A stretch of 64,000 nucleotides of DNA from Thiocapsa rosea. Lineage in GTDB: Bacteria; Pseudomonadota; Gammaproteobacteria; Chromatiales; Chromatiaceae. Where the stretch lies: NCBI RefSeq assembly GCF_003634315.1, contig NZ_RBXL01000001.1, forward strand, positions 3,514,501-3,578,500, written 5' to 3'. The notes under the pieces are model-generated. The model was given only the letters and a program-made list of their open reading frames with translations. It had not been told where the DNA came from and made no database searches. This document shows positions 841 through 53,673 of this stretch, in pieces. Every line of letters starts with the position of its first letter. Within the stretch, counting starts at the first letter, position 1. The position numbers and the translations under genes were made by a program.

Positions 841-926
841 CTTAAACCGCGCCCGGCGCGGTATGCGATGTTTTTGGATGGGATCGGCCCCCGGCAGACT
901 TGACGAGCTCTGGACGCGGTTTAAAT
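841..926. repeat. Palindromic element, copy R1 (single unit)
   Basis: A single unit of about 85 bp starts with TTAAACCGCGCCC and ends with GGACGCGGTTTAAA. Its ends are inverted repeats. The interior GCGGTATGCG matches the outer arm of the paired copies at 1438, 26560 and 45551. It lies just after the EAL-like gene and is flanked by TA on both sides. Confidence 0.8.
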
Positions 927-929
927 GCC

Positions 930-1046
930 ATGCCGAATCGTGGGGATTCGCCGGATGACTGGGCGGAGCTGGTCGGCGCGAGCACGACGGATTGGTCGGA
1001 CGACGATAGCCCCGACGCCATGGCGCGAGATTCGGTTCGGCGTTAG
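930..1046 (+). CDS. Possible small acidic ORF of 38 codons
   Basis: ATG at 930, TAG at 1044. The peptide is rich in Asp, Ser and Trp (DDWAELVGAS, DWSDDD) and lies between element R1 and the broken nucleotidyltransferase. I recognise no family and no clear ribosome binding site. It could be the remains of an antitoxin-like gene or chance. Confidence 0.15.
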   Translation: MPNRGDSPDDWAELVGASTTDWSDDDSPDAMARDSVRR

Positions 1047-1107
1047 GCTGTCGGCAGCCGGGCGCGCGAGCCTTGCCCGGATTCGTGTTTATCGAGCGAC
1101 TTCATCC

Positions 1108-1410
1108 ATGCGACTGACATCCGATCAGGTCATCACCATCCTCGGCACGGCATGACGTCTCTCGGGAGAGAACGCGGTGGTCTATCTCTTCGGCTCGCGG
1201 CTCGACGACCGGGCCAGAGGCGGCGATTTCGACTTGCTGATCGAGACCACGCAGGGTTTGACTCTCCTCGAACGCGCCCGTCTCAAGCTGGAGCTTGAGG
1301 AAGGGCTGGGGCTGCCGGTCGATGTCATCTCCCGAGCACGCAATGCGGAGCCGACACCCTTTCAGCGCATCGCGCGAGCGAGTGCGGTCCGTCTGGAGGC
1401 TGGGCCATGA
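1108..1410 (+). pseudogene. MNT-type nucleotidyltransferase interrupted by in-frame TGA
   Basis: The frame from ATG 1108 reads MRLTSDQVITILGTA, then TGA (1153-1155), then continues without shift as RLSGENAVVYLFGSRLDD and on to a TGA at 1408. The second part holds the hallmark MNT motif: FGS followed by GGDFDLLIE (the GS and DxD of the DNA polymerase beta superfamily). Homologues of this short MntA-type family usually run through this point, often with Arg, so a CGA-to-TGA change is the simplest explanation. Restart at GTG 1177 would give 77 residues without the first helix. Such proteins are normally the antitoxin or AMPylating half of a HEPN-MNT pair. The partner overlaps at 1407 and is itself truncated. 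Confidence 0.6.
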
Positions 1411-1442
1411 CCCTCCAGGCGCTGGAGGCGGAACGCGCTTAA
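1407..1442 (+). pseudogene. Truncated partner gene of the MNT protein (11 codons)
   Basis: ATG at 1407 overlaps the TGA of the nucleotidyltransferase (ATGA), the usual coupling in MNT/HEPN-type pairs. After MTLQALEAERA the frame meets the first TAA of element R2 (TTAAACCGCG) and stops. The rest of the gene is absent. The original function is inferred only from position. Confidence 0.4.
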
Positions 1443-1634
1443 ACCGCGCCCGGTGCGGTATGCGTCATGTGTTGGAAGGGTTTCGCCGCGCCAGCTCCGA
1501 CGACTGTCGGAGCTGGCGCGGTTTAAAGTATTAAAAAGATTAAATTTTAAACCGCGTCTCGCCAAGATCAAGGAAGTCTTCGACGCTAAACACAACATGA
1601 AAATGACGCATTTCGCTCTGGACGCGGTTTAAAC
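1438..1634. repeat. Palindromic element, copy R2 (paired, full length)
   Basis: Unit 1 (about 1439-1527) carries an inner stem, CGCCAGCTCCGAC with GTCGGAGCTGGCG, close to its right end. An A+T-rich linker (about 1528-1544) follows, then unit 2 (about 1545-1633). The outer arms (TTAAACCGCG..CGGTGCGGTATGCGTCAT and the complement of ATGACGCATTTCGCTCTGGA) are imperfect inverted repeats of about 30 bp. This copy has the opposite orientation to R5, R8 and R9. It supplies the stop of the fragment at 1407 and ends about 5 bases before the hrpA start. Confidence 0.85.
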
Positions 1635-1638
1635 ATCC

Positions 1639-4600
1639 TTGACCGATACCGAGTTTCCCACCGACACCGACCTCGGCACCTGTCTGATCCAGGACCGCCA
1701 CCGGCTGCGCCAACGTCTGCGCGGCTTGCGCCGTCGCGCGCGTGCGGGCGAGCCGTTCGAGCGTGGTCTGCTTGCCGTTTGGCAGACCCTGCGAGAATCC
1801 CAAGCCCTCCTCGAACGCCGCCGCGCCGGCGTGCCGTCGGTCATCGCCTATCCGCCCGAGCTTCCCGTGAGCGAGCGCCGCGAGGAGATCGCGAAGGCGA
1901 TCTCGGCCCACCAGGTCATCGTCCTCTGCGGCGAGACCGGCTCCGGAAAATCGACCCAGTTGCCCAAGCTTTGTCTGGAGCTCGGACGTGGATTCGCCGG
2001 GCGGATCGGCCATACACAGCCGAGGCGCATCGCCGCGCGCACCCTGGCGAATCGGATCGCGCAGGAGCTCGGCGGGACAGCCGGCGGGCTGGTCGGCGAC
2101 AAGGTGCGCTTCCACGACCGGGTCCGCCCGGAGACCGCGATCAAGCTGATGACCGACGGCATCCTGCTCGCCGAGATCCAGCAGGATCGGCTGCTCAACG
2201 AGTACGACACCCTGATCATCGACGAGGCCCACGAGCGCAGCCTCAACATCGATGTCCTGCTCGGCTATCTAAAGGGTCTGCTGCCGCGCCGACCGGATCT
2301 GAAGCTCATCGTCACCTCCGCGACCATCGATCCGCAGCGCTTCGCCGCGCACTTCGCCGATGCGCAGGGCCGCCCGGCGCCGATTCTCGAAATCTCCGGA
2401 CGGACCTATCCGGTCGAGGTCCGCTATCGCCCGCCCGAGGACGAGTCGGTCGGCGAGCGCGACGAGACGATGCAGCAGGCGATCTCGGACGCGGTCGGGG
2501 AGCTGGCGCGCATCGGACGCGGCGACGTGCTGGTCTTCCTCTCAGGCGAGCGCGAGATCCGCGAGACCGCCGAGACCCTGCGCAAGCATCACCCGCCCGC
2601 GACCGAGATCCTGCCGCTCTACGCCCGCCAAGGGCCGCAGGAGCAGGCGCGGATCTTCCAGTCGCACGGCACGCGGCGCGTGGTGCTGGCGACCAATGTC
2701 GCCGAGACCTCGCTGACCGTCCCCGGCATCCATTACGTCATCGACCCCGGTTTTGCGCGGATCAGCCGCTACAGCCACCGCCGCCAGCTCCAGCGCCTGC
2801 CGGTCGAGCGCATCTCGCGCGCCTCGGCCGATCAGCGCAAAGGGCGCTGCGGGCGGGTCGCCTCGGGCGTCTGCATCCGGCTCTACAGCGAGGATAACCT
2901 CGCCGCCCGAGCGGCCTTCACCGAACCCGAGATCCAGCGCACCAACCTCGCCGCCGTGATCCTGCGCATGAAGCTGCTCGGTTTCGGCGACGTGGCCGAC
3001 TTCCCCTTCCTCGATCCACCCGACCCGCGTCTGGTCGCCGACGGCGAGCGCACCCTCGAGGAGCTGGCCGCGCTCGATGCCCGCGGCGAGCTGACCGAGC
3101 TCGGCCGTCGGCTGGCGCGTCTGCCGGTCGACCCGCGCATCGGGCGCATCCTGCTCGCCGCCGCCGAGCAGCAGTGTCTGGCGGAGGTGCTGGTGATCGC
3201 CGCTGCGCTGAGCGTTCAGGACCCGCGCGAGCGCCCGCACGAGCAACGCGCCGCCGCCGATCAGATTCACGCCACCTTCGCCCATCCGGACTCGGACTTC
3301 CTGAGCTTCCTCAACCTCTGGCGCTTCCTGGAGAAGGAGCGCAAGGCGCATTCGCGCAACCAATTTCGTCTGCTCTGCCAACGCCACTTCCTGTCCTACA
3401 ACCGGGTCCAGGAGTGGCACGACATCGAGATCCAGCTGCGCGAGCAGATCCTGGAGATGGGTTTCAAGGAGAACCAGACCGCAGGCACCGAGGAGCAGAT
3501 CCACCGCGCGCTCTTGGCCGGACTGCTGAACCACATCGGCGCACTCGACGCGAATCATGAGTATCTCGGTGCGCGCAACAGTCGCTACCGCATCCATCCG
3601 AGCTCCGAGCTCTTCAAGACGTCGCCCAAGTGGATCCTCGCGGCCGAGCGGGTCGAGACCACACGCGCTTACGGGCGCATCGTCGCGCGCGTGCAGCCGG
3701 CCTGGATCGAAGCGGCCGGGCAGCACCTGCTGCAACGCAGCTATTTCGAGCCGCACTGGCAGGCCAAGTCCGGACAGGTTTCGGCCTACGAGAAGGTGAC
3801 CCTGTTCGGCGTCACCCTGGTGGCGAAGCGTCGGGTCAACTTCGGCCCCATCCGCCCGGCCGAGGCACGCGAGATCTTCATCCGCTTCGCCCTGGTCGAA
3901 GGCGACTTCAGCACTCGCGCGCCCTTTTGGCGCCACAACCAAGAGCTGATCGCGTCGATCCATCACCTGGAAGCCAAGTCGCGCCGCCGCGATATCCTGG
4001 TCGACGAGGAGGCGCTCTATGCCTTCTACGACCAGCGCATCCCCGCCGGGATCTATTCCACGCCTCAATTCGAGCAGTGGCTGCGCAAGGCGACCCGCAC
4101 GGATCCCAAGATCCTGCATCTGCGCCCGGCCGACCTGATGCAGCACGAGGCCACGGGGATCACGCCGGAGCACTTCCCCGACCGGCTCCAGGTCGGCGCC
4201 ACCGCGCTGCCGCTCGAATATCGCTTCGAGCCCGGCGAGGCGGCCGACGGTCTGACCCTGATCGTGCCCTTGCCGCTCATCAATCAGGTGACCGCCGAGC
4301 GGCTGGATTGGCTGGTGCCGGGTCTCTTGGAGTCGCGCATCACGGCCCTGCTGCGCGGTCTACCGAAAGGGCTGCGCACGGCGCTGGTCCCGGTGCCGGA
4401 TACCGCTGCGCGCTTGGCCGGGGGGCTCAAGGCCGCGCTCGCCGAGGGCCGGGCGCCGATCGATCGGCCGCTCACACAGGTCCTCGCCGAGCGGATCGCG
4501 GCCGAGCTTGGTCTGCGCATCCCCGAGGACGCCTGGGACCGCGACGCCATCCCGGCGCATCTGCGCATGAAGATCCGGCTCGTCGACGAAGCGGGCAGGG

Positions 4601-5664
4601 CGCTTGCGCTCGATGAGGATCCGCAACGGCTCAAGCAGCGTTTCGGCCAAGCGGGGCAGGCGCGGTTTGCCCGCATCCCTGATGCCGAGCTGGAGCGCGA
4701 GGGCATCACGCGCTGGGACTTCGGCGACCTGCCCGAGCAGGTCGAGATCACCCGCGGCGGGATCCGGATGCGCGGCTTCCCGGCCTTGGTCGACGAGGAA
4801 AAGAGCGTCGCGGTGCGGGTGCTGGATTCGCCCGAAGCCGCAGCGCGCGCGCACCGTGCGGGTCTGCGCCGGCTTCTGACCCTGACGCTCGGCGCGACCC
4901 TGCGCCCGATCCGCCAATCGCTCAAGGAGCTGGACCGGCTGCGGCTGCTCTATGCCAAGGCGCCCGTGACGGAGCCGGGGCGTCCCGCCCCGGAATCCCC
5001 CGAGACCAAGCACCCCGGCGCATCGACCTCCGGCGGACAGCCGTCTCGCCCGCCGAGCGGAACCGAGCCCCGCCCCCCCGACCTCTCCGACGAGCTGCTG
5101 GCCTTGATCCTGGATCGGACCTTCCTCGACGACCGTCCGCCCATCCGAACGCAGACCGACTTCGAGGCCCGTCTCGCCGAATCCCGCAGCCGGCTCCAGC
5201 CGACGGCTACCGAGGTCACCCGCCTCGCCGCCGAGATCCTCGCCGCCTACCAGTCACTGCGCCAGCGCCTCGCCGCCATCTCCCAGGTCAACTGGCAGCC
5301 GACGGCGCAGGACCTGCGCGACCAGCTCGATGCACTGGTCTTCCGGGGCTTCTTTCAACAGATCCCCTACGTCCGCCTCAAGCAGTATCCACGCTATCTC
5401 AAGGCCGCCGAGCAGCGTCTCGACAAGCTCGCCCACGCCCCCGGACGCGACCGCGACCAGATGGCCGTCATGGCCGAGCTGCTCACCCGCTGGCGCGACC
5501 GCACCGCCGCCGCCCGCAAGGCCGGCCGCGAAGACGCGCGTCTGGAGGAGATCCGCTGGCTGCTCGAAGAGCTGCGCGTCTCGCTCTTTGCCCAGACCCT
5601 CGGCACCGCCGGCCCGGTGTCGGTCAAGCGCATCGATGCGCGTTGGCGGGAGCTGGGGTTGTAG
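1639..5664 (+). CDS. hrpA: ATP-dependent RNA helicase HrpA
   Basis: The product is 1341 residues, the usual size for HrpA (about 1300), a DEAH-box RNA helicase thought to act on mRNA and stalled ribosomes. Visible in order: Walker A GETGSGKST near residue 98, the DEAH box in IIDEAHERSLNID near 190, motif III SAT, the QRKGRCGRV motif VI near 405, then the HA2/OB-fold region and the long HrpA-specific C-terminal half (DUF3418-like). The start is TTG at 1639, the only early start in frame, with no good ribosome binding site; element R2 ends directly before it and may have replaced the native leader. A Pro/Ser-rich linker lies near residues 1110-1150. It ends in TAG. It looks intact. Confidence 0.93.
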   Translation: MTDTEFPTDTDLGTCLIQDRHRLRQRLRGLRRRARAGEPFERGLLAVWQTLRESQALLERRRAGVPSVIAYPPELPVSERREEIAKAISAHQVIVLCGETGSGKSTQLPKLCLELGRGFAGRIGHTQPRRIAARTLANRIAQELGGTAGGLVGDKVRFHDRVRPETAIKLMTDGILLAEIQQDRLLNEYDTLIIDEAHERSLNIDVLLGYLKGLLPRRPDLKLIVTSATIDPQRFAAHFADAQGRPAPILEISGRTYPVEVRYRPPEDESVGERDETMQQAISDAVGELARIGRGDVLVFLSGEREIRETAETLRKHHPPATEILPLYARQGPQEQARIFQSHGTRRVVLATNVAETSLTVPGIHYVIDPGFARISRYSHRRQLQRLPVERISRASADQRKGRCGRVASGVCIRLYSEDNLAARAAFTEPEIQRTNLAAVILRMKLLGFGDVADFPFLDPPDPRLVADGERTLEELAALDARGELTELGRRLARLPVDPRIGRILLAAAEQQCLAEVLVIAAALSVQDPRERPHEQRAAADQIHATFAHPDSDFLSFLNLWRFLEKERKAHSRNQFRLLCQRHFLSYNRVQEWHDIEIQLREQILEMGFKENQTAGTEEQIHRALLAGLLNHIGALDANHEYLGARNSRYRIHPSSELFKTSPKWILAAERVETTRAYGRIVARVQPAWIEAAGQHLLQRSYFEPHWQAKSGQVSAYEKVTLFGVTLVAKRRVNFGPIRPAEAREIFIRFALVEGDFSTRAPFWRHNQELIASIHHLEAKSRRRDILVDEEALYAFYDQRIPAGIYSTPQFEQWLRKATRTDPKILHLRPADLMQHEATGITPEHFPDRLQVGATALPLEYRFEPGEAADGLTLIVPLPLINQVTAERLDWLVPGLLESRITALLRGLPKGLRTALVPVPDTAARLAGGLKAALAEGRAPIDRPLTQVLAERIAAELGLRIPEDAWDRDAIPAHLRMKIRLVDEAGRALALDEDPQRLKQRFGQAGQARFARIPDAELEREGITRWDFGDLPEQVEITRGGIRMRGFPALVDEEKSVAVRVLDSPEAAARAHRAGLRRLLTLTLGATLRPIRQSLKELDRLRLLYAKAPVTEPGRPAPESPETKHPGASTSGGQPSRPPSGTEPRPPDLSDELLALILDRTFLDDRPPIRTQTDFEARLAESRSRLQPTATEVTRLAAEILAAYQSLRQRLAAISQVNWQPTAQDLRDQLDALVFRGFFQQIPYVRLKQYPRYLKAAEQRLDKLAHAPGRDRDQMAVMAELLTRWRDRTAAARKAGREDARLEEIRWLLEELRVSLFAQTLGTAGPVSVKRIDARWRELGL

Positions 5665-5688
5665 GGCAGGATAGCCGGGTGCTTGCAG

Positions 5689-5749
5689 GTTGGATCCGCA
5701 TGTTGAAGCCGCGTGGAGGGTAAGATTGCAGACCATCTCCGGATCCAAC
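5689..5749. other. 9-bp inverted repeat after hrpA
   Basis: GTTGGATCC (5689-5697) is repeated inverted as GGATCCAAC (5741-5749), 43 bases apart, in the gap between hrpA and the accessory genes. No T-tract follows, so a terminator is not supported. It may mark the edge of the inserted accessory segment. Confidence 0.3.
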
Positions 5750-5798
5750 ACGTGGGCGCTACGATGCCGACGACCACAAACCGAGTGAACAAGTCCCC

Positions 5799-6107
5799 AT
5801 GCACACGAAGGAAGTCATCGACCGCATCTTCAAGGAACCCGGCATGCAGTACGAGCAACTCATCGAAGTGGCCGCAAGGAGTCAATCCATGACTGATCCT
5901 CAAGCGCCGGCTGACCCGCGCGAACGCGATCCCGATCTGGTCAATGCCGAGATTGCTCTACAGCGCGCCGCCCTGCGCGCCCGCGAGAAGGCGTGGCGAC
6001 ACGGTGTCCCGGTGGTCTATTCCGAGGACGGGGTCATCAAGTACGAGTATCCGCAGCCGGACGCCGCTGATCAGAATCGGCAGACGAGCCAGTCATACAC
6101 CCCCTGA
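5799..6107 (+). CDS. Small hypothetical protein at the head of the accessory island
   Basis: The frame is 102 codons from ATG 5799; an alternative start is ATG 5889 (MTDPQAPADP), giving about 72 residues. The conserved-looking core is NAEIALQRAALRAREKA followed by PVVYSEDGVIKYE, a helix then a short beta hairpin. Small proteins of this type occur next to toxin-antitoxin genes (family-level recollection). It lies just upstream of the MntA-like gene and may be translated with it. Function unknown. Confidence 0.45.
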   Translation: MHTKEVIDRIFKEPGMQYEQLIEVAARSQSMTDPQAPADPRERDPDLVNAEIALQRAALRAREKAWRHGVPVVYSEDGVIKYEYPQPDAADQNRQTSQSYTP

Positions 6108-6154
6108 TCGCCACCCAACGCGCCGCCATCGCCGATGTCTGCCGGCGCTACCAG

Positions 6155-6403
6155 GTGCGACGACTCGAGGTCTTCGGCTCCGCCGCGTGCGGCACGGATT
6201 TCGACCTCGACCGCAGCGATGCCGACTTCCTCGTGGAGTTCGCGCCCGATGCGCAGGCCGATCTGGGCGGCTGGTTCAGCGTCCGAACCGAGCTGGAACG
6301 CCTCCTCGGGCGCGGCGTCGATTTGGTGGAATACCCAGCCGTGCGCAACCCCTACGTGCGCGCCGACATCGAACGGACGCGGGAGCTGGTCTATGCCGCG
6401 TGA
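6155..6403 (+). CDS. MntA-like nucleotidyltransferase (antitoxin of HEPN-MNT pair)
   Basis: The product is 82 residues from GTG 6155. The same frame is open upstream through a CTG at 6104 (LIATQRAAIADVCRRYQV), which looks like the expected first helix, so the true start may be a rare codon near there. Motifs: FGSAACG, then SDADFLVEF, the GS...DxD catalytic signature of the MNT fold. MntA proteins AMPylate and silence the HepT RNase toxin. The gene overlaps the hepT-like gene by 11 bases. The motif is intact, so the enzyme may still be active although its partner is not. Confidence 0.65.
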   Translation: MRRLEVFGSAACGTDFDLDRSDADFLVEFAPDAQADLGGWFSVRTELERLLGRGVDLVEYPAVRNPYVRADIERTRELVYAA

Positions 6404-6587
6404 TCCGCGCGCCTATCTGTGGGATGTCCGCGAAGCCGTCACGGACATTCAGGGCTTCGTCGCCGGTCTGGATCTGTCGGCCTATGCGACGATTTCGCAT
6501 GATCGGGTGTGGGCGACGATCCAGACGGCCCTGCCGACCTTGGCCGAGACAGTACAGGGCCTTTTAACGGAGTTGGGCGAGGAATGA
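6393..6587 (+). pseudogene. HepT-like (HEPN/DUF86) toxin with internal deletion
   Basis: The frame encodes only 64 residues; HepT proteins are usually about 110. The N-terminus (PRDPRAYLWDVREAV, GFVAGLD) and the C-terminus (ATISHDRVWATIQTALP) are both good HepT sequence, but they are joined directly at LSAY/ATIS. The missing central 45-50 residues carry the Rx4-6H catalytic motif and the helix before the GY tail. The frame is kept across the junction. The protein should lack RNase activity. The ATG overlaps the end of the MntA-like gene, and the TGA overlaps the ATG of the RhuM gene at 6584. Confidence 0.6.
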
Positions 6588-7621: not shown

Positions 7622-7633
7622 GGAGAAGCCTTC

Positions 7634-7784
7634 ATGACACTGGCCGATGCCGATCAACAACTGCTGCGGGATCTGTGCGAACAGCACGGGGTGAGCCTGG
7701 GCAAAGTACTCAAGCTGAAATCAGATCGGAACGTCTTTTCAATCTGCGTCAACAATGCCATACGTGGAAGGAGCTTTCACCTAG
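7634..7784 (+). pseudogene. 5' fragment of a small protein gene, broken at the IS
   Basis: ATG 7634 follows the RhuM stop by 12 bases with a GGGAG sequence upstream. The first 27 residues (MTLADADQQLLRDLCEQHGV, then SLGKVLKL) resemble small helical proteins found next to ATPases of DNA-modification or phosphorothioation-type systems (recollection, not a search). After KVLKL the sequence no longer looks like that family, so a deletion may precede the IS insertion at 7785. Confidence 0.35.
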
Positions 7785-9251
7785 GAGCCTGTCCGACTTA
7801 TGTTCCGGATTGGGTTCCGAGAGCCTGCATTGGCAAAAATGAGACAAGCAGCGGGGCGTGAAACGTCGAAATTGCGAGTATTTTCCGCCAAAACGCGCGA
7901 TCTTGCCCTCTTTTTCATCCTTTAAGCGCAAAAAGGCGCTTGAGGTTCCATCCCAGACACACCAGCGCCCACTCGCCCTGCACCGCACGCAGACCGCGCA
8001 GCAGGAATTGGCGAAAGCCCTGCACCTGCTTGATGATGCCGAAGACGGTCTCGACCGTGGCCTTGCGCTTGGCGTAGCGGGCCTTGCCGTCGCGGGTGCG
8101 TAGCCGATACGCAGTGGCCTCGGCCGTTGTCGGCTGGCCTTGGGGTTCGGGCGGGTCGTCGGCGAGCCGCTCGGCCAAGGGCGGGTTGTGGCGCTGGCGC
8201 GCCGCGGGGATGTAGGGGTCGATGCCGGCGGCCGCGCAGCGTTCGAGGTTCTCTTGGCTGTGATAGCCGGTGTCGGCCAGCATTGCGTTGACCGTGCCGA
8301 GCGCCTCGGGCAGGGCGTCGAGGCGCTCCAGCGCCGGGCCGACCTCCTGCGTGTCGTTGGTGTGATCGGTGACGTGCTGAGCGACGATCAGGTGCGTCGC
8401 GGTATCGACGTTGGCCTGCGCGTTGTAGGCCTGCTCGAAGCCGCCGCCGGCGGTGGGCATGATGCTCGCGACGGGCTTCGCGCTCGGCGAGCTTGCGTTC
8501 GTACTCGGCCTGCTCGGCCGCGAAGCGCGCGTGCGCGCGCTTGGATCTCGGCCTTGGCCGCGGCGATGACGGCGAGGCGCTGTTCGCGCCGCTTCAGCTC
8601 CGAGGGGAGGTCCAACGGCGCGGGCCGCGGCGTGTTGTCGGCCTGCTCGGCCAGACGCATCAGGTCCTCGACCTCGCCCTTGAGCTGTTCCTCCAGGCGG
8701 TTGGCGTGCGCGTAGCTCAGCGCTTTGTGCTTGCTTGCGTTGGCTTTGATCTTGGTCCCGTCGAGACTGACGGTACCGAGCTTGAGCAGCCCCATCGCCT
8801 GCGCGATGAGCAGCACCGCGGTGAACAGCCCCGCCAGCTCGTCGAGAAAGCGCTTGCGGAAATCGGCGATGGTGCGGTGGTCGGGATACGTGTTGGCGCA
8901 GATGGAGCGAAACGCGATCGAGTCGTGCGTCGCCAGTGCGAGTTTGCGGCTGGAGAATACGCCGGTGGCGTAGCCGTAGAACAACAGCGCCACCAGCATC
9001 GCCGGGTGATAGGGCCGCGAGCCGGTGCCGGCGTAAGCCGCGACCAGATGGCTCAGATCGAGTCGATCGACGATCTCCACCACGAACCGCGCCAGATGGT
9101 CTTCGGGCAGGTACTCCTGCACCGAAGCCGGGAACAGATCCGGCGTCTCCCGATCCACCGTCACGAAGTTCACCGCCATGCTGCATTCTCTCGTCGATGC
9201 GAACCCGGCCCTATTGTACTCGAAGGCTGGGCCGACAAGTCGGACAGCCTC
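7785..9251. mobile_element. IS1182-like insertion sequence, 1467 bp, defective
   Basis: The ends are inverted repeats: GAGCCTGTCCGACTT at the left and the complement of AAGTCGGACAGCCTC at the right, 14 of 15 matching. CTAG (7781-7784 and 9252-9255) flanks both ends and may be a 4-bp target duplication or part of a palindromic target. The element carries one transposase gene on the minus strand, which is broken. It sits between the small-protein fragment and the ATPase remnant. Confidence 0.8.
7915..9179 (-). pseudogene. IS1182-family transposase, frameshifted
   Basis: The N-terminal part starts at ATG 9179 (MAVNFVTVDRETPDLFP) and runs in frame to about 8520, including the first catalytic Asp region LDGTKIKANASKHKA. 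The C-terminal part, in another frame, resumes near 8465 with IMPTAGGGFEQAYNAQ, continues through MLADTGYHSQENLE (second Asp) and KATVETVFGIIKQVQGFRQF (catalytic Glu), and ends FALKG. Between them a third frame reads FAAEQAEYERKLAERE, normal family sequence, so there is one indel in a GC-alternating run near 8520 and a second change near 8465. The latter also seems to have removed the usual Arg/Pro-rich and NLTDEES stretch. No active transposase is expected from this copy. Confidence 0.75.
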
Positions 9252-9255
9252 CTAG

Positions 9256-9990: not shown

Positions 9991-10110
9991 CCGCAGTCGG
10001 AGTTCGGCCCAACGATTTGTGTGCCAGGGCGGGTCGCTGTAAGCAATCGACAGGCGCTTCCCCGGCCAGTACATTCCGGTTGGAATAAGGTCTTCATGCC
10101 TGCTAATCTG

Positions 10111-10127: not shown

Positions 10128-10139
10128 TCGAGAGCGAGT

Positions 10140-11062: not shown

Positions 11063-11074
11063 CTGAAGGGCGTG

Positions 11075-20197: not shown

Positions 20198-20240
20198 TCG
20201 GTCATGTCGGCTTCCTCGGGGGAGCGTGAGCGCTCTGATT

Positions 20241-20352
20241 GAAATTTAATATATTTTAATGCCTTAAACCGCGCCAGCTCCGACAGCCGTCGGAGCTGGC
20301 GCGGCCAATCCAATCCAACACATGACGCATACCGCACCGGGCGCGGTTTAAC
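20241..20352. repeat. Palindromic element, copy R3 (linker plus single unit)
   Basis: An A+T-rich linker (20241-20262) is followed by one unit, from TTAAACCGCG at 20264 to CGCGGTTTAA at 20351, containing the inner stem CCAGCTCCGAC/GTCGGAGCTGG and the GCCAATCCAATCCAACACATGACGCATACCGC arm in reverse orientation to R2. The second unit is missing. Its right end provides the TAA stop of the AAA+ ATPase gene on the minus strand. Confidence 0.85.
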
Positions 20353-27587: not shown

Positions 27588-27902
27588 ACGGGTTAACACC
27601 CGCTTCTGCATCAAGACCCTATCATCGCCGTAACGCATTGCACCGGTGAACCTGGAGCGATGACGGATCCCGAAACCGGGCGCCGCAACGTTCGACCGCG
27701 GAGAAACAGACATCCGCCTGCCGACGGTGTTCGATTCGATCGATTTTCAGTTGCTTGAAAAGGGCAAACCACTCCGAAAGGGTGGGACGCAAAACCACTG
27801 GCCTACGTCTCGATCGGTCGAGATAGGGTCGCAGGGTTGCCAAGCGAACGCGACCCCTCCTGGAGTCATGCCGTTCGCACGGCACGACCTCAGGAGATTC
27901 GC
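27588..27902. other. Intergenic region before the subtilase gene
   Basis: 315 bases with no ORF I can support and no copy of the element. It should contain the subtilase promoter. AGGAG at 27890-27894 is the ribosome binding site for the ATG at 27903. Confidence 0.4.
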
Positions 27903-43303: not shown

Positions 43304-43312
43304 TGCGCGGCG

Positions 43313-45539: not shown

Positions 45540-45550
45540 AGGTTCACCCT

Positions 45551-45746
45551 CTAAACCGCGCTCAGAACGAGATGCGCCATTTTCATGTTGCGTTTGGCTT
45601 CGGAGAAGTCCTCGATCTCAGTGGGATGCGGCTTAAAAGCTAATATTTTTTAATACCTTAAACCGCGCCGGCTCCGGCAGTCGTCGGAGCCGGCGTGGCC
45701 AAGCAATCCAACAAACGACGCATATCGTGCTGAGCGCGGTTTAGCG
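45551..45746. repeat. Palindromic element, copy R9 (paired, splits an operon)
   Basis: The full ~195-bp form. The outer arms match at 28 of 32 positions as inverted repeats (CTAAACCGCGCTCAGAACGA versus the complement CTAAACCGCGCTCAGCACGA, then ATGCG). The linker TAATATTTTTTAATACC lies between the units; the inner stem is CCGGCTCCGGCAG/CGTCGGAGCCGG. If the element is removed with one TA, pepSY ends CGC TAG and phoP follows 11 bases later. Confidence 0.9.
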
Positions 45747-45986: not shown

Positions 45987-46076
45987 GGTGTTCTTGGCTC
46001 CGGGATCCGTTCCAGGTGCGGGTGAATCTAGCACAGCCGATCCGTCGAGCCGAAGGCATCTGCGGACCGCAACCCA

Positions 46077-46379: not shown

Positions 46380-46490
46380 GGATCATCTCCAGCGAAGCGG
46401 CGGGGAAACGGATACCCCGTCATAACCCTAATCATAGAGCCTCCACGCTGAACCGCACCTGAACCGCAGTGCCGTCGAAATCCCTTATCA

Positions 46491-46577
46491 CTTAAACCGC
46501 GCCCGCTGCGACGCCTGCAGATGGATTCGACATCAACCCCGGGGAGACAGCGCATGTCCCCCCGGGGCGCGGTTTAA
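46491..46577. repeat. Palindromic element, copy R10 (single unit)
   Basis: CTTAAACCGCGCCCGCTGCG at the left, CCCGGGGCGCGGTTTAA at the right, about 85 bp. An inner stem CCCCGGGG-type is possible. The right end forms the TAA stop of glcB. On the far side the flank reads TTAAGTG on the glcB strand, so the pre-insertion stop would also have been TAA. Confidence 0.78.
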
Positions 46578-48745
46578 TGCCCTTTGAGCCGCCTGCGCAT
46601 CACGTGCAGGGTCGGCTCGGTATAGCCGTTCGGCGCCTCGCGACCCTTGAAGATCAAATCCGAGGCGGCCTCGAAGGCGATGCCGTCGAATCCGGGTGCC
46701 ATCGGGCGATGCAGAGGATCATCGGCGTTCTGCGCGTCGACCACGGCGGCCATCCGCTTGAGCGTCTCCATGACCTGCTCCCGCGACACGATCCCGTGAT
46801 GCAGCCAGTTGGCGACATGCTGGCTCGAGATCCGCAGGGTCGCGCGATCCTCCATCAGGCCGACGTTGGCGATATCCGGCACCTTCGAGCAGCCGACACC
46901 CTGATCGACCCAGCGCACCACGTAGCCCAGGATGCCCTGGCAGTTGTTGTCGAGCTCCTGCTGGATTTCCTCGGCACTCCAGGCGCAATCGGGATCGAGC
47001 GGAATCTGCAGGATGGTGTCCAGGCTCGCCCGCGGTCCGCCGGCGGCCAGCTCGGCTTGGACGGCGGCCACATCGACTTGGTGGTAGTGCATCGCATGCA
47101 GGGTCGCGGCGGTCGGGGAGGGCACCCAGGCGCAGTTGGCGCCGGCCTTGGGGTGACCGGCTTTGGTGGCCACCATGGCGCGCATCTCGTCGGGCATGGT
47201 CCACATGCCCTTGCCGATCTGGGCATGGCCGCGCAGACCGCAGGCGAGACCGACATCGACGTTCCAGTTCTCGTAGGCGAGCAGCCAAGGCGCGGTCTTC
47301 ATGTCGCCTTTGCGCAGCACCGCACCGGCCTCCATGTCGGTGTGGATCTCGTCGCCGGTGCGGTCCAGGAAGCCGGTGTTGATGAAGATGACCCGCTCGG
47401 ATGCGACCCGAATGCACTCCTTGAGATTCAGCGTGGTGCGGCGCTCCTCGTCCATGATGCCGATCTTGATGGTGTTGCGGGCGAGCCCGAGTGCGTCCTC
47501 GACACCGGCGAAGATGTCGACCGCGAGCTGAACCTCCTCGGGTCCGTGCATCTTCGGCTTGACGATATAGACGCTGCCGGCGCGCGAGTTGCGACGAGCG
47601 CCGTAAGTCGGATGGATGTCGTGCAGGGCGCAGGCCACCGTGACCAGCGCATCGAGCATGCCTTCCGGGATCTCGTTGCCGTCGGCATCGAGCACGGCAT
47701 CCGTCGTCATGAGATGGCCGACGTTGCGCACCAGCATGAGCGAGCGGCCGGGCAGGGTGAGTGTGCCGCCGAGCGGGGTGCGGTAGATCCGGTCCTCGTC
47801 CAGGGCGCGATCGACAGGCTTTCCGCCCTTCTGGAAACGGGCCGTGAGGTCGCCTTTCATCAGGCCCAGCCAGTTGCGATAGACCCCGACCTTGTCCTCG
47901 GTATCGACCGCGGCGACCGAGTCCTCGCAGTCCTGGATACTGGTCATGGCCGATTCCAACAGCAGATCGGCCACCCCGGCGGGGCTGTCGCGACCGACCT
48001 GATGCTCGCGATCGATCCGGATCTCGATGTGCAGGCCATGGTTGATCAGCAGGATGGCATCCGGCTTCTCCGGCGTGCCGAGATAGCCGACGAACTGCCC
48101 CGGCTCCGCCAGCATGGTCTGGCTATTGTCCGGCAGGCAGACGACCAGCTTGCCGTCATCGACCCGATAGCCGCAGGACTCGCCGTGCGAGCCGCGGTTC
48201 AAGGGTGCCGCCTCGTCGAGGAAGGCGGCGGCGCGGGCGATGACCTCCGCCCCGCGTTTGGGGTTGTAGGCCGAGCCGCGCTCCAAGCCATCCGTGTCCG
48301 GGATCACGTCTGTCCCGTAGAGCGCGTCGTAGAGGCTGCCCCACCGGGCGTTGGCGGCGTTGAGCGCGTAACGTGCGTTGCTCACCGGCACCACGAGCTG
48401 TGGGCCGGCGATCTCGGCGATTTCCGCGTCGACGTTCGCCGTGGTGACGCCGAAATCGAGGCCTTCGGGGACGAGATAACCGATGTCCGACAGGAAGGCG
48501 CGGTAGGCGCCCTGATCCAGTGTTCGGCCGCGATGCTCCAGATGCCAGGCGTCGATCCGGGCCTGCAAGGCGTCGCGCTTCGCCAGAAGGGTGCGATGAC
48601 GTGGCGCGAGCTCCTGCACCAGGTTCCCGAAGGATTGCCAGAATGCGTCGGGCGCGATGCCGGTACCGGGCAAGACATCGTCGCTAACCAGATCGAACAA
48701 AGGCTGCGCGACCTTCAAGCCGCTTACATCCATACGCTTCATCAT
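46574..48745 (-). CDS. glcB: Malate synthase G
   Basis: The product is 723 residues from ATG 48745, the same length as E. coli GlcB. It condenses glyoxylate and acetyl-CoA to malate. Recognisable: [120 protein letters not shown] and [21 protein letters not shown]. No isocitrate lyase or glycolate oxidase genes are next to it. The upstream in-frame ATG at 48853 gives an unrelated N-terminus. Stop codon supplied by element R10. Confidence 0.96.
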
Positions 48746-49046
48746 GATCTCGATCTCCAACCCTCGGGTCGCGAGGGCCATCTCAGTGGTATCGGAGTGC
48801 CGTGCATTGTTGTCTTCAGCCCCCCAAAAAGCGAATCGGCACGCGTCTCGCAACGATCGTCGAAGGGACGATGATCCGGGCGCGCCCGATTGTACAACTG
48901 AACTAAAATGGAGGCTTTGGCCGACCGGGGCAATCTTTGACCGATGAATTCCGTCAAGTTAGAGGATTCGTTGGTCCAATGCTTCGGGAGTGATGCGCCG
49001 GCTTGCCGGCGGGTCCTCGGGAACGACGGAGGAAGCGCCGAAATCA
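48746..49046. other. Intergenic region between divergent glcB and GGDEF-EAL genes
   Basis: 301 bases; the promoters of both genes should be here. A less GC-rich patch (48890-48915) includes TTGTACAAC and TAAAAT but their spacing is too short for a sigma-70 pair. No repeat or gene seen. Confidence 0.35.
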
Positions 49047-52000
49047 ATGAAATACCTCTTGCGACGGTCGCCAGCCCTGCGCGTAGCCCTGATTTACTTC
49101 GTCTTCGGGCTCGTTTGGATCTTGGCTTCGGACGTGCTGCTGTCGCTCGCGACAGGCGAGCTGGGAATCCTGCTGGGCATGAGCCTGACAAAGGGCCTGT
49201 TGTTCGTCGCGGTGACCGCGATCCTGCTCTTTTGGCTGCTCAATACCTCGATCGGTCGCGCCCTGGAGGCAGAACCCTCGGCGCTCGAGGGGCCGATCAA
49301 GCCCGTCACGCCGCTTCGGATGATCCTGGGTTTTTTGGCCCTCTTGATTCTGGTCCCGATGTTGAGTCTCGGGGTCGTCTTGATTCATGGTCCCCAACTG
49401 GAGCGTGACGCCTATTCGAATCTGAACGCGGTTGCCGCGCTCAAGGCCGGTCAACTCGAGCAATGGATGGCGGAACGGCACGGCGACGCTGTACTGCTCG
49501 CCTCCGATGTACCCTTCTCACGTCGAATCGACCAGTTACTCGGTGACTTGCCTCCGGATCCGACCCTCGCCGCAGACATCTCCGACCGGCTTGCCGCACT
49601 TGTGAACGCCTACGGCTACGAGGGCGTTCTCCTCGTCGCGCTTGACGGCGACGTTGTGCTGAGTATCGGCGAGCATTCCGAGCTGCTGGCGCCGCTCGAC
49701 GCCTTGGCCTTGCGCGCACGGGTCGAGAATCGTGTCCTGCAGAGCGGACTCCATCGGGACGAGGGAGGCGGCATTCACCTCGATTGGGTGATCCCGATCT
49801 CGGTCGAGGAGGGCGGAGCCCGGCGGGCGGTCGCCACCGTCGTGCTGCGTGCGGGTACCGAGGGCTTTTTGTATCCGTCCCTGCGCGCTTGGCCGACCGC
49901 GAGCCCGAGCGCCGAGACCCACTTGGTGGAGCGGGTGGGCGATTTCGGGGTCTTTCTGAGCGCCGCTCGCCATCGCGACTGGGTACCGCTTGTTCGAAAG
50001 GTGCCCTTGGGCGATCGGCTGCCGGCAACGGCTGCGTTGCTGCACGACAGCGACGTGGGGCAGGTTCCGGGGGAGGACTATCGCGGGGTCGAGGTGCTTG
50101 CCGTCTTTCGCCAGATCGCAGGGACCAACTGGCGCCTGATCGCCAAGGTGGACCGTGCCGAGGTCATGGCGCCACTGCGGGTGTTGGTCTATTGGGTCAG
50201 CCTGGTCGCCTTGGCCGCGCTGTCGGTGCTCGCGACGTCCGGTTACTTCTTCTGGCGTCTTCAACGTCGTGCCCACCGTCTCGAGATGGCGGCGCAGGCC
50301 GCCGAGAAGGACCGGCTGTTGATGAAGTTCTATGAGCTCCCCTTCGTGGGCATGGCGATCACCTCGCCTCGGATCAAACGCTGGATTCGTTTCAACGATC
50401 GGCTCTGCGAGATCTTCGGTTACGCGCGCGACGAGCTGGCCGAGACGACGTGGGTCGAGTTGACCTATCCGCCGGATCTCGACGCGGATCTGGCCGAGTT
50501 CGAGCGGGTATTGGCCGGAAAGTCGGACGGCTACGCGATGGAGAAGCGCTACCTGCGCAAGGACGGGCGGATTGTCCACACCGAGATCGATGTCCGTGTC
50601 GTGCGGCACGAGGACGGGAGCATTGACTATTTCGTCGCGACCATCGACGACATTAGCGAGCGCAAGCGTCAGGAAGAACGGCTTCGGCTGGCCGCGGCGC
50701 TGTTCGACAACACGCGCGAGGGTGTCGTGGTGACGGATCGCGATTCGCGTATCCTGCAGGTCAACACGGCCTTCGTCGAGCTGACGGGCTATGGCGAGGA
50801 TGAGGTGGTTGGACGAACACCGAGTCTTCTGCGATCGGATCGTCACGACGCCGCCTTCTTCGATGCGATGTGGCGGAGCATCGACGAAACCGGCCATTGG
50901 CAGGGCGAACTCTGGAACCAGCGCAAGAACGGCGAGCTCTATCCGGTGTTGCTCAACATCAGCGCGGTCAGGGACGATGCGGGGCAGGTGATCCAGTATG
51001 TCGGCGCCTTCTCGGATCTGTCTCGGATCAAGGCGTCCGAGTCACGGGTCGATTTTCTGGCCCATCACGATCCCTTGACCGAGCTGCCCAATCGTTTTCT
51101 GCTCGTCTCGCGCCTGGATCACGCGATCGATGTGGCGGCCCGCGAAGGCCAGCTCGTGGCGCTGCTGCTGCTGGATCTGGACCGCTTCAAGGACGTCAAC
51201 GACAGTTTCGGTCATCCCGCAGGCGATGTCCTGCTCCGACAGACGGCGCGACGTCTCGGCGGTTGTCTGGTTGCGGCCGATACCTTGGCACGCCTCGGCG
51301 GAGACGAGTTTGCGATCTTGCTCGAAGATATCGTCGATCCGCAGGACGCCGCCCGTGTCGCCGAGCGGCTGATCGCGGCGTTGGGCGAGACCACCAGGCT
51401 GCCCGACGGCACCGAGGTACGCATCGGCGCCAGTATCGGCATCAGCGTCTACGCCGGGCAAGACGAGGATGCCGGGGAGATGCTGCGGCAAGCCGACGCC
51501 GCCCTCTATCGGGCGAAGGAGGGGGGCCGCAGTCGATTCGATTTCTATACCGAGGATCTGACCCACAGCGCTCGCCATCGCGTCGAGACCGAGCGACGGC
51601 TGCGCGACGCCTTGGCCGAGGGGCAATTGGTCGCGCATTACCAACCCCAGGTCGAGATCGCCACCGGACGGGTGATCGGCGTGGAGGCGTTGGTGCGCTG
51701 GCGCGATCCCGAGCATGGGTTGATCCCGCCCGGCGAGTTCATCCCGCTCGCCGAAGAGACCGGCTTGATCGGGGCGCTCGGCGAGTGGGTGCTGCACGAG
51801 GCATGCCGCCAAGGCGTACTCTGGATGGAGATCGGCATCGCCCCCTTGGTCGTTGCGGTGAACCTTTCGGGGTATCAGCTGCGTCAAGGCGACATCGTCG
51901 AGTCCGTTGCGCGCGTGCTTCGTCAGACCGGTTTCCCGGCCGAGCGGCTCGAACTCGAACTCACCGAAAGCGCCCTGATGGAGCGCGAGGGCGATACCGC

Positions 52001-52349
52001 AGGCGTCCTCGATCGGCTGCGTGCACATGGTATCCGCATGGCGGTCGACGACTTCGGAACCGGCTATTCCTCCTTCGCCTATCTGCGCCGGTTCCGACTG
52101 GACGTGCTGAAGATCGACAAGCGTTTCATCGACGAGATCGACCAACAGCAGGATGCGCGCACCATCGTCGACGCCATCATCGCCATGGGTCACGCCCTCG
52201 GATTGCAGGTCTTGGCCGAGGGCGTCGAGACCCAATCCCAGCTCGACATCCTGCGCGACCAAGGTTGCGATCTCTTCCAAGGTTACTTGAAGAGTCGGCC
52301 CTTGGATGCCGATGCCGTCACCGCGCTGCTGCGCAACGATGCGGGCTGA
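49047..52349 (+). CDS. Membrane-bound multi-sensor GGDEF-EAL protein
   Basis: The product is 1100 residues from ATG 49047 (MKYLLRRSPALRVALIYFVF). Layout: three N-terminal TM helices (about 10-120), a periplasmic CACHE-like domain (about 125-370), TM (VYWVSLVALAALSVLATSGY), two PAS domains with PAC (about 425-545 and 550-670), GGDEF (about 680-840), EAL (about 850-1095). GGDEF is intact (RLGGDEFAILLED) but the I-site position reads VAAD, so product inhibition is probably lost. EAL is intact (VEALVRWRDP, DDFGTGYSSFAYL). It may respond to redox or ligand cues through its PAS domains to set c-di-GMP. Monocistronic by spacing. Confidence 0.92.
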   Translation: MKYLLRRSPALRVALIYFVFGLVWILASDVLLSLATGELGILLGMSLTKGLLFVAVTAILLFWLLNTSIGRALEAEPSALEGPIKPVTPLRMILGFLALLILVPMLSLGVVLIHGPQLERDAYSNLNAVAALKAGQLEQWMAERHGDAVLLASDVPFSRRIDQLLGDLPPDPTLAADISDRLAALVNAYGYEGVLLVALDGDVVLSIGEHSELLAPLDALALRARVENRVLQSGLHRDEGGGIHLDWVIPISVEEGGARRAVATVVLRAGTEGFLYPSLRAWPTASPSAETHLVERVGDFGVFLSAARHRDWVPLVRKVPLGDRLPATAALLHDSDVGQVPGEDYRGVEVLAVFRQIAGTNWRLIAKVDRAEVMAPLRVLVYWVSLVALAALSVLATSGYFFWRLQRRAHRLEMAAQAAEKDRLLMKFYELPFVGMAITSPRIKRWIRFNDRLCEIFGYARDELAETTWVELTYPPDLDADLAEFERVLAGKSDGYAMEKRYLRKDGRIVHTEIDVRVVRHEDGSIDYFVATIDDISERKRQEERLRLAAALFDNTREGVVVTDRDSRILQVNTAFVELTGYGEDEVVGRTPSLLRSDRHDAAFFDAMWRSIDETGHWQGELWNQRKNGELYPVLLNISAVRDDAGQVIQYVGAFSDLSRIKASESRVDFLAHHDPLTELPNRFLLVSRLDHAIDVAAREGQLVALLLLDLDRFKDVNDSFGHPAGDVLLRQTARRLGGCLVAADTLARLGGDEFAILLEDIVDPQDAARVAERLIAALGETTRLPDGTEVRIGASIGISVYAGQDEDAGEMLRQADAALYRAKEGGRSRFDFYTEDLTHSARHRVETERRLRDALAEGQLVAHYQPQVEIATGRVIGVEALVRWRDPEHGLIPPGEFIPLAEETGLIGALGEWVLHEACRQGVLWMEIGIAPLVVAVNLSGYQLRQGDIVESVARVLRQTGFPAERLELELTESALMEREGDTAGVLDRLRAHGIRMAVDDFGTGYSSFAYLRRFRLDVLKIDKRFIDEIDQQQDARTIVDAIIAMGHALGLQVLAEGVETQSQLDILRDQGCDLFQGYLKSRPLDADAVTALLRNDAG

Positions 52350-52385
52350 TCCCCCGGTCCGCCCGCGGGCTGCAAACCGGAGTGG

Positions 52386-52416
52386 GCGCCTTTGCGATAC
52401 TGAATGCCGGATTTAG
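52386..52416. repeat. Short dispersed repeat (shared with 11031-11062)
   Basis: GCGCCTTTGCG followed by GAATGCCGGATTTAG; see 11031. It ends exactly where the vsr start codon begins and may have contributed its upstream region. Confidence 0.4.
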
Positions 52417-52965
52417 ATGATGGATAAGCTGAACCCGCGCCAGCGCTCGCGCCTCATGGCTCGGGTCGTCGGCAAGGACACCAAGCCCGAGTGGATCCTG
52501 CGCTCCGCACTGCACCGGCTCGGGTTTCGCTATCGTCTGGGCGGGGGCGGATTGCCCGGTCGGCCGGATCTGGTCCTGCCCAAGTACCGCGCCGTCGTTT
52601 TCGTTCACGGCTGCTTCTGGCATCACCATGCCGACTGCAAACGCGCGACCTTGCCGCGGACCAACGCCGCCTTCTGGAAGGAGAAGCTGGAGCGCAACGT
52701 CGCACGCGACGGCGAGGCCGCAGCCGCGCTCGATGCCTTGGGCTGGAAGGTCATCGTGGTGTGGGAATGCGAGCTGTACCGCGATCCGGTCGCGGTCGCG
52801 TCTCGTGTGGTTGCGGCATTGACCGAGGGGGACGCCGCGCAGGAGGACGGCGGCTGCGATCTCGGAACACTCGATCCCCGTCGGTTACTCCGAGTCGCCG
52901 AGGAGAAGCGACGCTATCGGATCGGCCCCAAACCACTCGACGAGTATCCGGATCAAGACGGGTGA
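52417..52965 (+). CDS. vsr: Very short patch repair (Vsr) endonuclease
   Basis: The product is 182 residues from ATG 52417 (ATG 52420 is equally possible). Vsr nicks DNA 5' of T in T:G mismatches formed by deamination of 5-methylcytosine. Core motifs: NPRQRSRLMARVVGKDTKPE, GRPDLVLPKYRAVVFVHGCFWHHH with catalytic Asp and the metal-site His, TRTE-like TNAAFWKEKLERNVARD, and LGWKVIVVWECEL. It has about 30 extra C-terminal residues (LDPRRLLRVAEEKRRYRIG) compared with E. coli Vsr. No cytosine methyltransferase is next to it, which is unusual. Confidence 0.93.
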   Translation: MMDKLNPRQRSRLMARVVGKDTKPEWILRSALHRLGFRYRLGGGGLPGRPDLVLPKYRAVVFVHGCFWHHHADCKRATLPRTNAAFWKEKLERNVARDGEAAAALDALGWKVIVVWECELYRDPVAVASRVVAALTEGDAAQEDGGCDLGTLDPRRLLRVAEEKRRYRIGPKPLDEYPDQDG

Positions 52966-53025
52966 GTGCATGAGCCAAGCGACCGCCCCGACGCGACGCC
53001 GGCGATCGTCGCGAAGCGCCAATAT

Positions 53026-53059
53026 CCCGGGATCGACGACTTGCAGTCGTCCTCTTCCG
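53026..53059. repeat. Short dispersed repeat (shared with 38892-38924)
   Basis: CCGGGATCGACGACTTGCAG then TCGTCCTCTTCC. See 38892. Here too one frame reads PGIDDLQS. Confidence 0.5.
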
Positions 53060-53102
53060 CTGTCCCGACGGCCAGCGGCATCGAGTCCAACTCCACGATC
53101 TC

Positions 53103-53275
53103 ATAAACCGCGCCGAACACGCGTTGGCCGGGCTATGAACCAGGCCGCGCCGTGACTCGTTCGAAATCTCGGCCATGGAGGCACGTGGCGCGGAGCGCCG
53201 CGAGGGATGCGTGACACCGCGGAGCGGGTGTCACGCGTCCGAAAACATCGCATACCGCGCTGGGTGCGGTTTAGA
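53103..53275. repeat. Palindromic element, copy R11 (rearranged)
   Basis: Starts ATAAACCGCGCC and ends CATACCGCGCTGGGTGCGGTTTAG, so the outer arms are family-typical, but the interior is unlike other copies and carries its own hairpins (GTGACACC with GGTGTCAC at about 53210-53233). It forms the TAA stop of the coiled-coil gene at 53271. Reconstructing the site here leaves TAT rather than a stop, so either the copy has drifted or the gene was shortened. Confidence 0.6.
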
Positions 53276-53531
53276 TGTCGTCGACTAGCTCCAAGCGGCG
53301 TTCGATTCGGTCCAAGCGATCCTTGAGCCGGTCTATGGCTGCCTGCTGGCGCGCGATATCCTCGGCGGTTCCGGCCTCGTCGCGGCGAATCCCGGCGATC
53401 GCGGATTCGACCCGATTAATGCGATGCTTGACGTCGTTGAATTCGTTGTGCATGTTGGTTTGCAGCGCCGTGATCTGGTTCCGTAGAGCACGGAACTGCT
53501 CGAGAATGAGGTGCTCGATGTTCTCGGTCAT
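53271..53531 (-). CDS. Small coiled-coil protein
   Basis: The product is 86 residues from ATG 53531 (MTENIEHLILEQFRALRNQI); ATG 53546 is possible. Nearly all of it is heptad-patterned helix (ALQTNMHNEFNDVKHRINRVE; DIARQQAAIDRLKDRLDRIERRLEL). Such proteins are common next to toxin or helicase genes and often form dimers or trimers. Function unknown. The stop TAA lies in element R11. Confidence 0.6.
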   Translation of the reverse strand: MTENIEHLILEQFRALRNQITALQTNMHNEFNDVKHRINRVESAIAGIRRDEAGTAEDIARQQAAIDRLKDRLDRIERRLELVDDI

Positions 53532-53659
53532 GGCGATCATCTCCACCGGATTACGTTTTTCCGGAATTCAGAGTGCCGGCTTGCTCGCGTCATCCGACGT
53601 TCGAACGATGCGGTCGATGTCGCAATGATAGGTCAAGGCTAACACGACCGCTTTGGATC

Positions 53660-53673
53660 TCTAAACCGCGGTT
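53660..53673. repeat. Palindromic element, copy R12 (minimal remnant)
   Basis: CTAAACCGCGGTTG: only the two terminal arms, joined. It is probably the scar of an element that collapsed to its ends. Located about 5 bases past the WD40 gene stop. Confidence 0.4.

What the first reader, a model, noticed from the sequence alone, without database searches (positions are those of the whole stretch)
841..53673. A dispersed ~195-bp palindromic element family (TTAAACCGCG ends), about 12 copies in 64 kb
Copies at 841, 1438, 20241, 21592, 26560, 35000, 41395, 43313, 45551, 46491, 53103 and 53660. The full form is two hairpin units of about 85-90 bp joined by an A+T-rich linker, with outer inverted repeats of about 30 bp ending ATGCGTCAT-like. 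Single-unit and remnant forms also occur. No transposase for it is in the window, so it behaves like a MITE or a new REP-like class. I know of no named family with these ends.
Basis: partly seen in the sequence, partly recalled or inferred. Interest (0 to 1): 0.85.

Follow-up and report, generated by a model that had tools for sequence, protein, structure and literature searches.

The report
Compound two-hairpin MITE of purple bacteria
Hundreds of copies of a small non-coding jumping element, made of two joined hairpin halves, lie between genes of this purple sulfur bacterium; it inserts at TA dinucleotides and shares its ends with broken copies of an IS630-type transposon in related bacteria.

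Summary
TTAAACCGCG (at most one mismatch) occurs 28 times in the window (2.1 expected) and 956 times exactly in the 6.1-Mb genome (reversed control 6). A profile built without the window supports 10 of the 12 listed places, one of them only at its right end; 41395 and 53660 are unsupported. The complete element, 193-195 bp in most copies, is unit A (~87 bp), a 20-21-bp A+T-rich linker and unit B (~86 bp), in one relative orientation, with ~33-bp outer inverted repeats. Clean empty sites in relatives show TA duplicated in YTAR; 142 of 146 intact doubles have Y before and R after. Singles arise from doubles by deletion between internal repeats. It is a MITE. None was seen in this genome's seven IS630-type loci. 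REP/RAYT filing fails; selection on RNA structure is not shown. Exact units: 20 of 210 family genomes. New family, known kind.

The parts
842..925 (+). single A unit
   Evidence: 67 bits
1439..1632 (+). complete double: A 1439-1526, linker, B 1547-1632
   Evidence: 189 bits; folds as a long outer stem plus inner hairpins, z -10.2
20235..20351 (-). A unit 20264-20351 with linker remnant; B half lost
   Evidence: 110 bits
21586..21783 (+). old diverged double, site shared by 7 species; one half deleted in G008
   Evidence: 55 bits
26561..26755 (-). complete double
   Evidence: 184 bits
35020..35093 (-). fragment: outer end of an A unit
   Evidence: 31 bits
43314..43507 (-). complete double
   Evidence: 161 bits
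45551..45744 (-). complete double, absent from 6 of 6 relatives compared (empty sites TCAG in five, CAG in one)
   Evidence: 166 bits; fold z -8.5 as DNA
46492..46577 (-). old single unit, also at the orthologous place in G008, G002 and G004
   Evidence: 19 bits
53237..53273 (-). fragment: outer end of an A unit
   Evidence: 26 bits

Best explanation
A family of non-autonomous DNA transposons (MITEs) of the IS630/Tc1-mariner superfamily. SHOWN: the complete element is A-linker-B, about 194 bp, with imperfect outer inverted repeats of about 33 bp; it has inserted into YTAR sites with the central TA on both sides; copies are mostly intergenic; each half also has about 12-bp inverted ends, which form direct repeats inside the element, and deletion between these turns doubles into single 87-bp units. 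IS630-family transposase genes in relatives end in the same outer repeat, and one copy carries it at both ends. INFERRED: an IS630-type transposase of this group, supplied in trans, cut the element at its outer repeats and joined it to staggered cuts at TA (cut and paste). The element may stem from such an IS by loss of its middle, A from the right end and B from the left end. In this genome the driver was not seen, and among 62 sampled doubles no two are more than 95.4% alike, so no very recent burst shows there.
For: Copy number, control, distribution. Fixed anatomy: (150 of the 152 doubles with both halves classified are A-B in one orientation; 16 of 168 have an unclassified half). Empty sites: one search gives 21 rows, about 19 independent loci; in 6 the base before, the TA and the base after all match the relative (CTAA, CTAG, TTAG, CTAA, CTAG, TTAG); one search adds one (TTAA, G008). 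Target rule: 146 doubles, base before is C/T in 142, base after is A/G in 142, combinations TA 49, CA 38, TG 35, CG 16, near independence, which fits target bases and not a paired stem. Repeats kept by sequence: A-outer versus B-outer, positions 13-33, 0.615 identical within a copy, 0.627 between copies, 0.257 shuffled. Singles from doubles. Intergenic: 111 of 115 elements, against 430 of 2000 random segments (400 of the 864 kb were chosen because they held copies). Driver: L388, L395 and L412 (G061, G171) are IS630-family transposases (NF033545, 167 bits for L388, cut-off 100); their genes end inside the outer repeat; L412 has left and right ends about 1034 bp apart (30.5 and 12.4 bits with a profile made from the small element alone); end identity 29 of 34 (left, to B) and 24-26 of 34 (three right ends); over positions 10-33 at most 0.0002 of 20000 shuffles reach the best score. 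A Microvirga plasmid IS630 (59% identical protein) has TAAACTGCATC and TAAACCGCGTC ends. IS630-type transposition duplicates TA (PMC2170065, passages).
Against: No intact copy of the driver was seen: L388 lacks its 5' part, L395 lies at a contig start, L412 has an internal deletion; none is in the 7 IS630-type places of this genome. The right IS ends are no closer to A than to B overall (24/24, 23/25, 24/26 of 34), so the A-from-right reading rests on one position. 7 of about 19 empty sites lack TA at the centre (TCGT, TGAA, TCAG, TTCAA, CAAA, TCAG, and CGAC inside another copy); TCAG at window 45551 is shared by five relatives. Five more have TA but differ at a neighbour, one is ambiguous. 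Own-genome singles are as close to their nearest copy (0.931, 0.919) as units in doubles (0.932, 0.930) (sample leans to copies picked by similarity), so singles are not visibly older. 14 of 847 end-pair comparisons changed on both sides, 9 of them keeping a pair, against 94 one-sided (rows not independent).
Confidence: 0.92

Rival explanations
1. REP/REPIN-type element mobilised by a RAYT (Y1 tyrosine transposase): doublets mobile, singlets dead remnants.
For: Two palindromic halves; singles derived from doubles, as described for REPINs (PMC3116915 passages); 9 Y1_Tnp places in this genome and some in all 11 further genomes searched.
Against: TA duplication. Motif density at own Y1 loci 2.02 per 10 kb, at 30 others 1.71, against 2.76 in 464 kb of own genome not chosen for copies (the 4.38 included chosen stretches; G001 3.39, G004 1.23, G009 0.93). 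G006, G007 and G010, without exact units, also have Y1 genes. Only 39 of 103 Y1 places could be examined. Four loci (L320, L325, L332, L333) carry a profile match at similar places more than 1 kb from the gene.
Confidence: 0.02
2. Moved by another TA-duplicating DDE family, for instance the IS427 branch of IS5.
For: TA duplication and YTAR do not by themselves single out one family (recalled).
Against: IS630 genes with the same ends exist. PF13340: no match in 8 of 9 genomes, one in G001 whose locus lacks the ends. 30 of 36 DDE_Tnp_1 places in G000, G001 and G143 examined: copies of the element lie near three, none as the IS's own ends by my reading.
Confidence: 0.03
3. A structured RNA element (terminator, processing site) kept by selection on its hairpins.
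For: Strong folding (z -10.2 RNA; -8.5 DNA); intergenic position; 31 of 111 placed copies lie between convergent genes, which hold 36.6 of 181 kb of intergenic DNA.
Against: In-situ identity of the ends (0.917) equals what neutrality predicts (about 0.915, my estimate) once the demand for good ends in one partner is allowed for (interior 0.83); no within-copy coupling of outer arms; no Rfam match at gathering score, two sub-threshold plant-microRNA matches. Single copies may still act on transcripts.
Confidence: 0.05
4. Single units are themselves mobile and doubles are pairs of neighbouring insertions.
For: Each half has its own matched ends; three singles have short empty sites (rows 1, 8, 21).
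Against: One A-B orientation and a conserved 20-21-bp linker; singles with orthologous doubles and exact deletion end points; none of the three singles' empty sites matches its flanking bases.
Confidence: 0.08

Closest known systems
IS630-family IS with TAAACCGCG ends (L412, L388, L395 of Chromatiaceae; Microvirga ossetica plasmids)
   Same: outer repeat and TA at the ends; IS630-family transposase
   Different: codes for a transposase; held Chromatiaceae copies are broken; no such copy among the 7 DDE_3 places of this genome
RUP (Streptococcus pneumoniae) with IS630-Spn1
   Same: small non-coding element with TIR, TA targets, moved in trans by an IS630 element, intergenic (PMC2229807 section 4 and first part of section 5)
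   Different: one unit of 107 bp; 108 copies reported; compared from the text only
Correia/NEMIS and ERIC
   Same: TIR, TA at the ends, target duplication (Table 1)
   Different: not described there as two palindromic halves; no IHF consensus seen in the linker here (by eye, consensus recalled)
CIR (Caulobacter/Brucella)
   Same: two hairpin arms joined by a linker, TA at termini
   Different: no TIR and unknown duplication in that table; GANTC motif; other bacteria
REPIN (Pseudomonas)
   Same: doublet taken as the mobile form, singlet as remnant
   Different: here a TA duplication, IS630-type ends, no link to RAYT genes

Membership tests
MITE | short, non-coding, many copies | tested here: met
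MITE | terminal inverted repeats | tested here: met
MITE | empty sites with target duplication | tested here: met
   exact in 6 of about 19 loci and one more; 7 of 19 not TA
MITE of the IS630 family | ends shared with an IS630-family transposon | tested here: met
   three of 85 examined DDE_3 places (of 108 listed): L388, L395, L412; both ends in L412 only
MITE of the IS630 family | driver in the same genome | tested here: not met
   7 of 7 DDE_3 places in G000 examined, ends of the repeated one TATACCTCATATAGG
MITE of the IS630 family | movement by that transposase | not testable with these tools
   needs an experiment
REP/REPIN | association with a RAYT gene | tested here: not met
   39 of 103 places examined
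REP/REPIN | no target duplication (recalled) | tested here: not met
CIR | sequence similarity to CIR | not tested
   no CIR sequence was held

The most novel reading that the evidence does not exclude
The two-hairpin double is the preferred substrate: the IS630-type enzyme acts on outer repeats held together by the palindromic halves, as REPINs are thought to need a doublet. The 12-bp ends kept matched within A and within B would then be functional and not relics, which would explain why this compact form outnumbers its IS so far, and the non-TA empty sites would reflect a looser target or repair step.
Probability: 0.1. Interest if true: 0.6.

Novelty: new member of a known kind. Interest (0 to 1): 0.4.

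Why it matters
The element makes up 1.55% of 464 kb of this chromosome that was not chosen for copies (49 loci, reversed control 0). It gives a set of ordered insertions and half-deletions across Thiocapsa and relatives, and a MITE/IS pair in which the small form is abundant where the IS was not seen. It brings A+T-rich landing sites that other elements have used. Annotating it keeps its halves from being taken for terminators or small RNAs.

Tried and rejected
On checking I saw that one search had listed end-repeat hits in L388 and L395 that I had passed over; followed them. That raised the odds of the IS630 reading and lowered its rivals.

Driver searches that gave nothing: Y1_Tnp; DUF4096; DDE_Tnp_1; other DDE_3 loci. 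Inward-facing outer repeats 300-4500 bp apart: 18 pairs, 9 stretches opened (its output was cut in the middle) and some again; 16 pairs with an orphan end, of which L106, L168, L357/L368 and one L209 pair were opened. They hold host genes or passengers: an IS1595-family IS in the linker with 8-bp duplication AAATATTA, a 1929-bp IS in an A unit, shorter inserts. L403 has an end-repeat hit (17.6 bits) about 790 bp before a DDE_3 gene and was not followed. L372 has a whole single unit beyond its DDE_3 gene, which gave no match to the L388 protein.

109 units outside types A and B (95 alone) were not resolved. I first took symmetric end variation for covariation; one-sided changes dominate and bases -1/+1 are target sequence. 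A supposed fourth single/double pair (G004/L025) is another copy at the place and was dropped; G001 171546 against G009 is a larger deletion. Alignments A1 and A2 (50 of 62 and 40 of 59 chosen rows) were not used for a covariation count.

Full report
What is there. The end motif is far above chance in the window and in the genome. A profile of 147 complete copies, none from the window, finds 49 loci (1.55% of the DNA) in 464 kb of contiguous own sequence and none in the reversed sequence; in the window it supports 10 of the 12 listed places. Scaled to the genome that is very roughly 600-700 loci (inference).

Anatomy. Among 373 distinct elements in 2.75 Mb of held sequence, 204 are single units, 168 doubles, 1 larger. 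The detector demands both ends with at most three mismatches, and much of that sequence was fetched because it held copies. Units are 86-88 bp in 504 of 543. Types A (240) and B (194) leave 109 others, 95 of them alone. Doubles with both halves classified are A-linker-B in 150 of 152, with a linker close to GATATTAAAAAATATAAAATT. The outer ends of A and B agree at 25 of 33 consensus positions; the inner ends share only about the first 10-12. As a single strand a copy folds into a long outer stem with inner hairpins.

Mobility. Using regions of six relatives and other held loci, 21 occupied/empty comparisons (about 19 independent loci) were found. Six match the empty site exactly with TA duplicated between Y and R; one search adds one. 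Five have TA with a changed neighbour (ATAA, CTAG, CTAA, TTAG, ATAG), one is ambiguous, seven have another centre. The copies themselves give the firmest support: in 146 intact doubles the outside bases are Y and R in 142 each and combine almost independently. Copy 45551-45744 is present only in this genome among the seven compared. Three relatives are 87.5-91% alike in aligned parts of this region, so mutation explains some mismatches, but TCAG shared by five relatives is left open.

Singles. Window 21586 is a double in six species and has lost one half in G008 between copies of CGCGGTT. Three further pairs show a double against a single ending exactly at the repeat: G009/L113, L163/L162 and G001/G000, the last with CTAG in G009.

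Fate of old copies. In 59 orthologous pairs (of 65; 6 outside 0.45-0.97 identity dropped) the ends are 0.917 identical, interior 0.83, linker 0.742, flanks 0.896. Because good ends were demanded in one partner, neutrality predicts about 0.915, so selection on the ends is not shown. Two-sided changes are few (14 of 847, 9 keeping a pair; 94 one-sided, 16 with gaps; rows not independent) and may come from template switching in palindromes (recalled). The 30 like-length pairs that could be oriented (of 67) have the same orientation. At window 1439, G004 has a double of the other orientation with the same right flank (by eye), and the G004 site is empty (CTAA) in G001 (row 11); the left flanks next to the element do not align.

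Context. A crude codon-usage gene call on 864 kb of own sequence, 400 kb of it chosen because it held copies, places 111 of 115 elements between genes, 3 overlapping, 1 inside; of 111 with neighbours, 62 tandem, 31 convergent, 18 divergent, intergenic DNA being 100, 37 and 44 kb.

Distribution. Exact units: 9 of 56 genomes, this one included; 20 of 210 genomes and 8 of 61 genera of the family, with 286 here, 202 in G143 and none in G006, G007, G010 of the same genus; reversed controls 0. Hosts named in the listed rows are Thiocapsa, Thiobaca, Thiocystis, Lamprocystis and Chromatiaceae MAGs (scan cut at its limit). No match in plasmid or phage records.

Driver. DDE_3 (IS630-type) places: 7 in this genome, 35 in 8 relatives, 66 in 11 other genomes; 85 of these 108 were examined through loci. 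Three carry the element's outer repeat at the gene's 3' end: L388 (same as L400) and L395 (same as L401) in G061, and L412 in G171. The L388 protein piece is an IS630-family transposase (167 bits, cut-off 100) and L395 passes too (110.7); the N-terminal piece of L412 matches the same family weakly (24.4, below cut-off) and a helix-turn-helix domain. L412 has both ends, CTAAACCGCGTCCAGAGTGAGATGTGTAGTTTTTG on the left, about 1034 bp apart, with the gene internally deleted against L388. A 103-bp remnant of the right end lies in Thiocystis minor (L098). Ends and scores are in the evidence field. The Microvirga relative has similar ends (20 of 26 bases matching between its own two ends); in Aulosira only the 3' side looks alike, GACGAGGTTTA. 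The left end is TC-type like B and the right ends CC-type like A at one position; overall the right ends are no closer to A.

Literature. Seen: PMC2229807 outline with abstract, section 4 and the first part of section 5; PMC3116915 passages; PMC2170065 passages, with a reference title on IS630 and CTAG; PMC6374484 passages (nothing on this element). Listings only. None showed this element; nine papers hold the string TTAAACCGCG, judged unrelated from titles and abstract starts. The library is open-access only.

Verdict. A well-supported IS630-type MITE family with a compound two-hairpin body, new as far as these searches go, ordinary in kind, notable for abundance and for its half-deletion life cycle.

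Noticed in passing
L090:3043-3155, L189:16072-16174, L221:3724-3823, L225:12705-12807, L227:14672-14774: A second small inverted-repeat element with ends GGYGATTTCCGGGAA, about 100-113 bp; 21 of 54 distinct end contexts abut a CGCGGTTTA end of the present element (a few loosely), as if it used the terminal TTAA as a target. None in the window.
   Followed up: partly
L173:397-1698: IS1595-family insertion sequence in the linker of a double, with 8-bp duplication AAATATTA.
   Followed up: yes
L368:2112-4243: 1929-bp IS with a 608-aa DDE_Tnp_1 gene inside an A unit; further copies in G000 and G001.
   Followed up: partly
L420, L422 (Microvirga ossetica plasmids): IS630-family IS, 59% identical transposase, with TAAACYGCRTC-type ends: a wider IS630 group may share this end.
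   Followed up: partly
L403:1151-1182: End-repeat hit of 17.6 bits about 790 bp before a DDE_3 gene in G061.
   Followed up: no
window 7942-8448: DDE_Tnp_1 transposase gene on the minus strand with 16-bp inverted repeats (one mismatch) CCTAGGAGNCTGTCCG around it; unrelated to the element.
   Followed up: no
window 27753-27844: c-di-GMP-I riboswitch, 74.2 bits.
   Followed up: no
window 56879-57188: Direct-repeat family with 15-bp spacing, 13 registers.
   Followed up: no
window 62533-62609: Direct repeats with 14-bp spacing, GCCTCCTGCCTCCA-like.
   Followed up: no
window 1439-1632: G004 has a double of the opposite orientation with the same right flank, and that site is empty in G001: independent insertion, replacement or inversion in place.
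   Followed up: partly
L320, L325, L332, L333, about positions 50-180: A Y1-transposase locus has element-like sequence more than 1 kb away at similar places in four loci from several genomes; L316 has paired end motifs there too.
   Followed up: no
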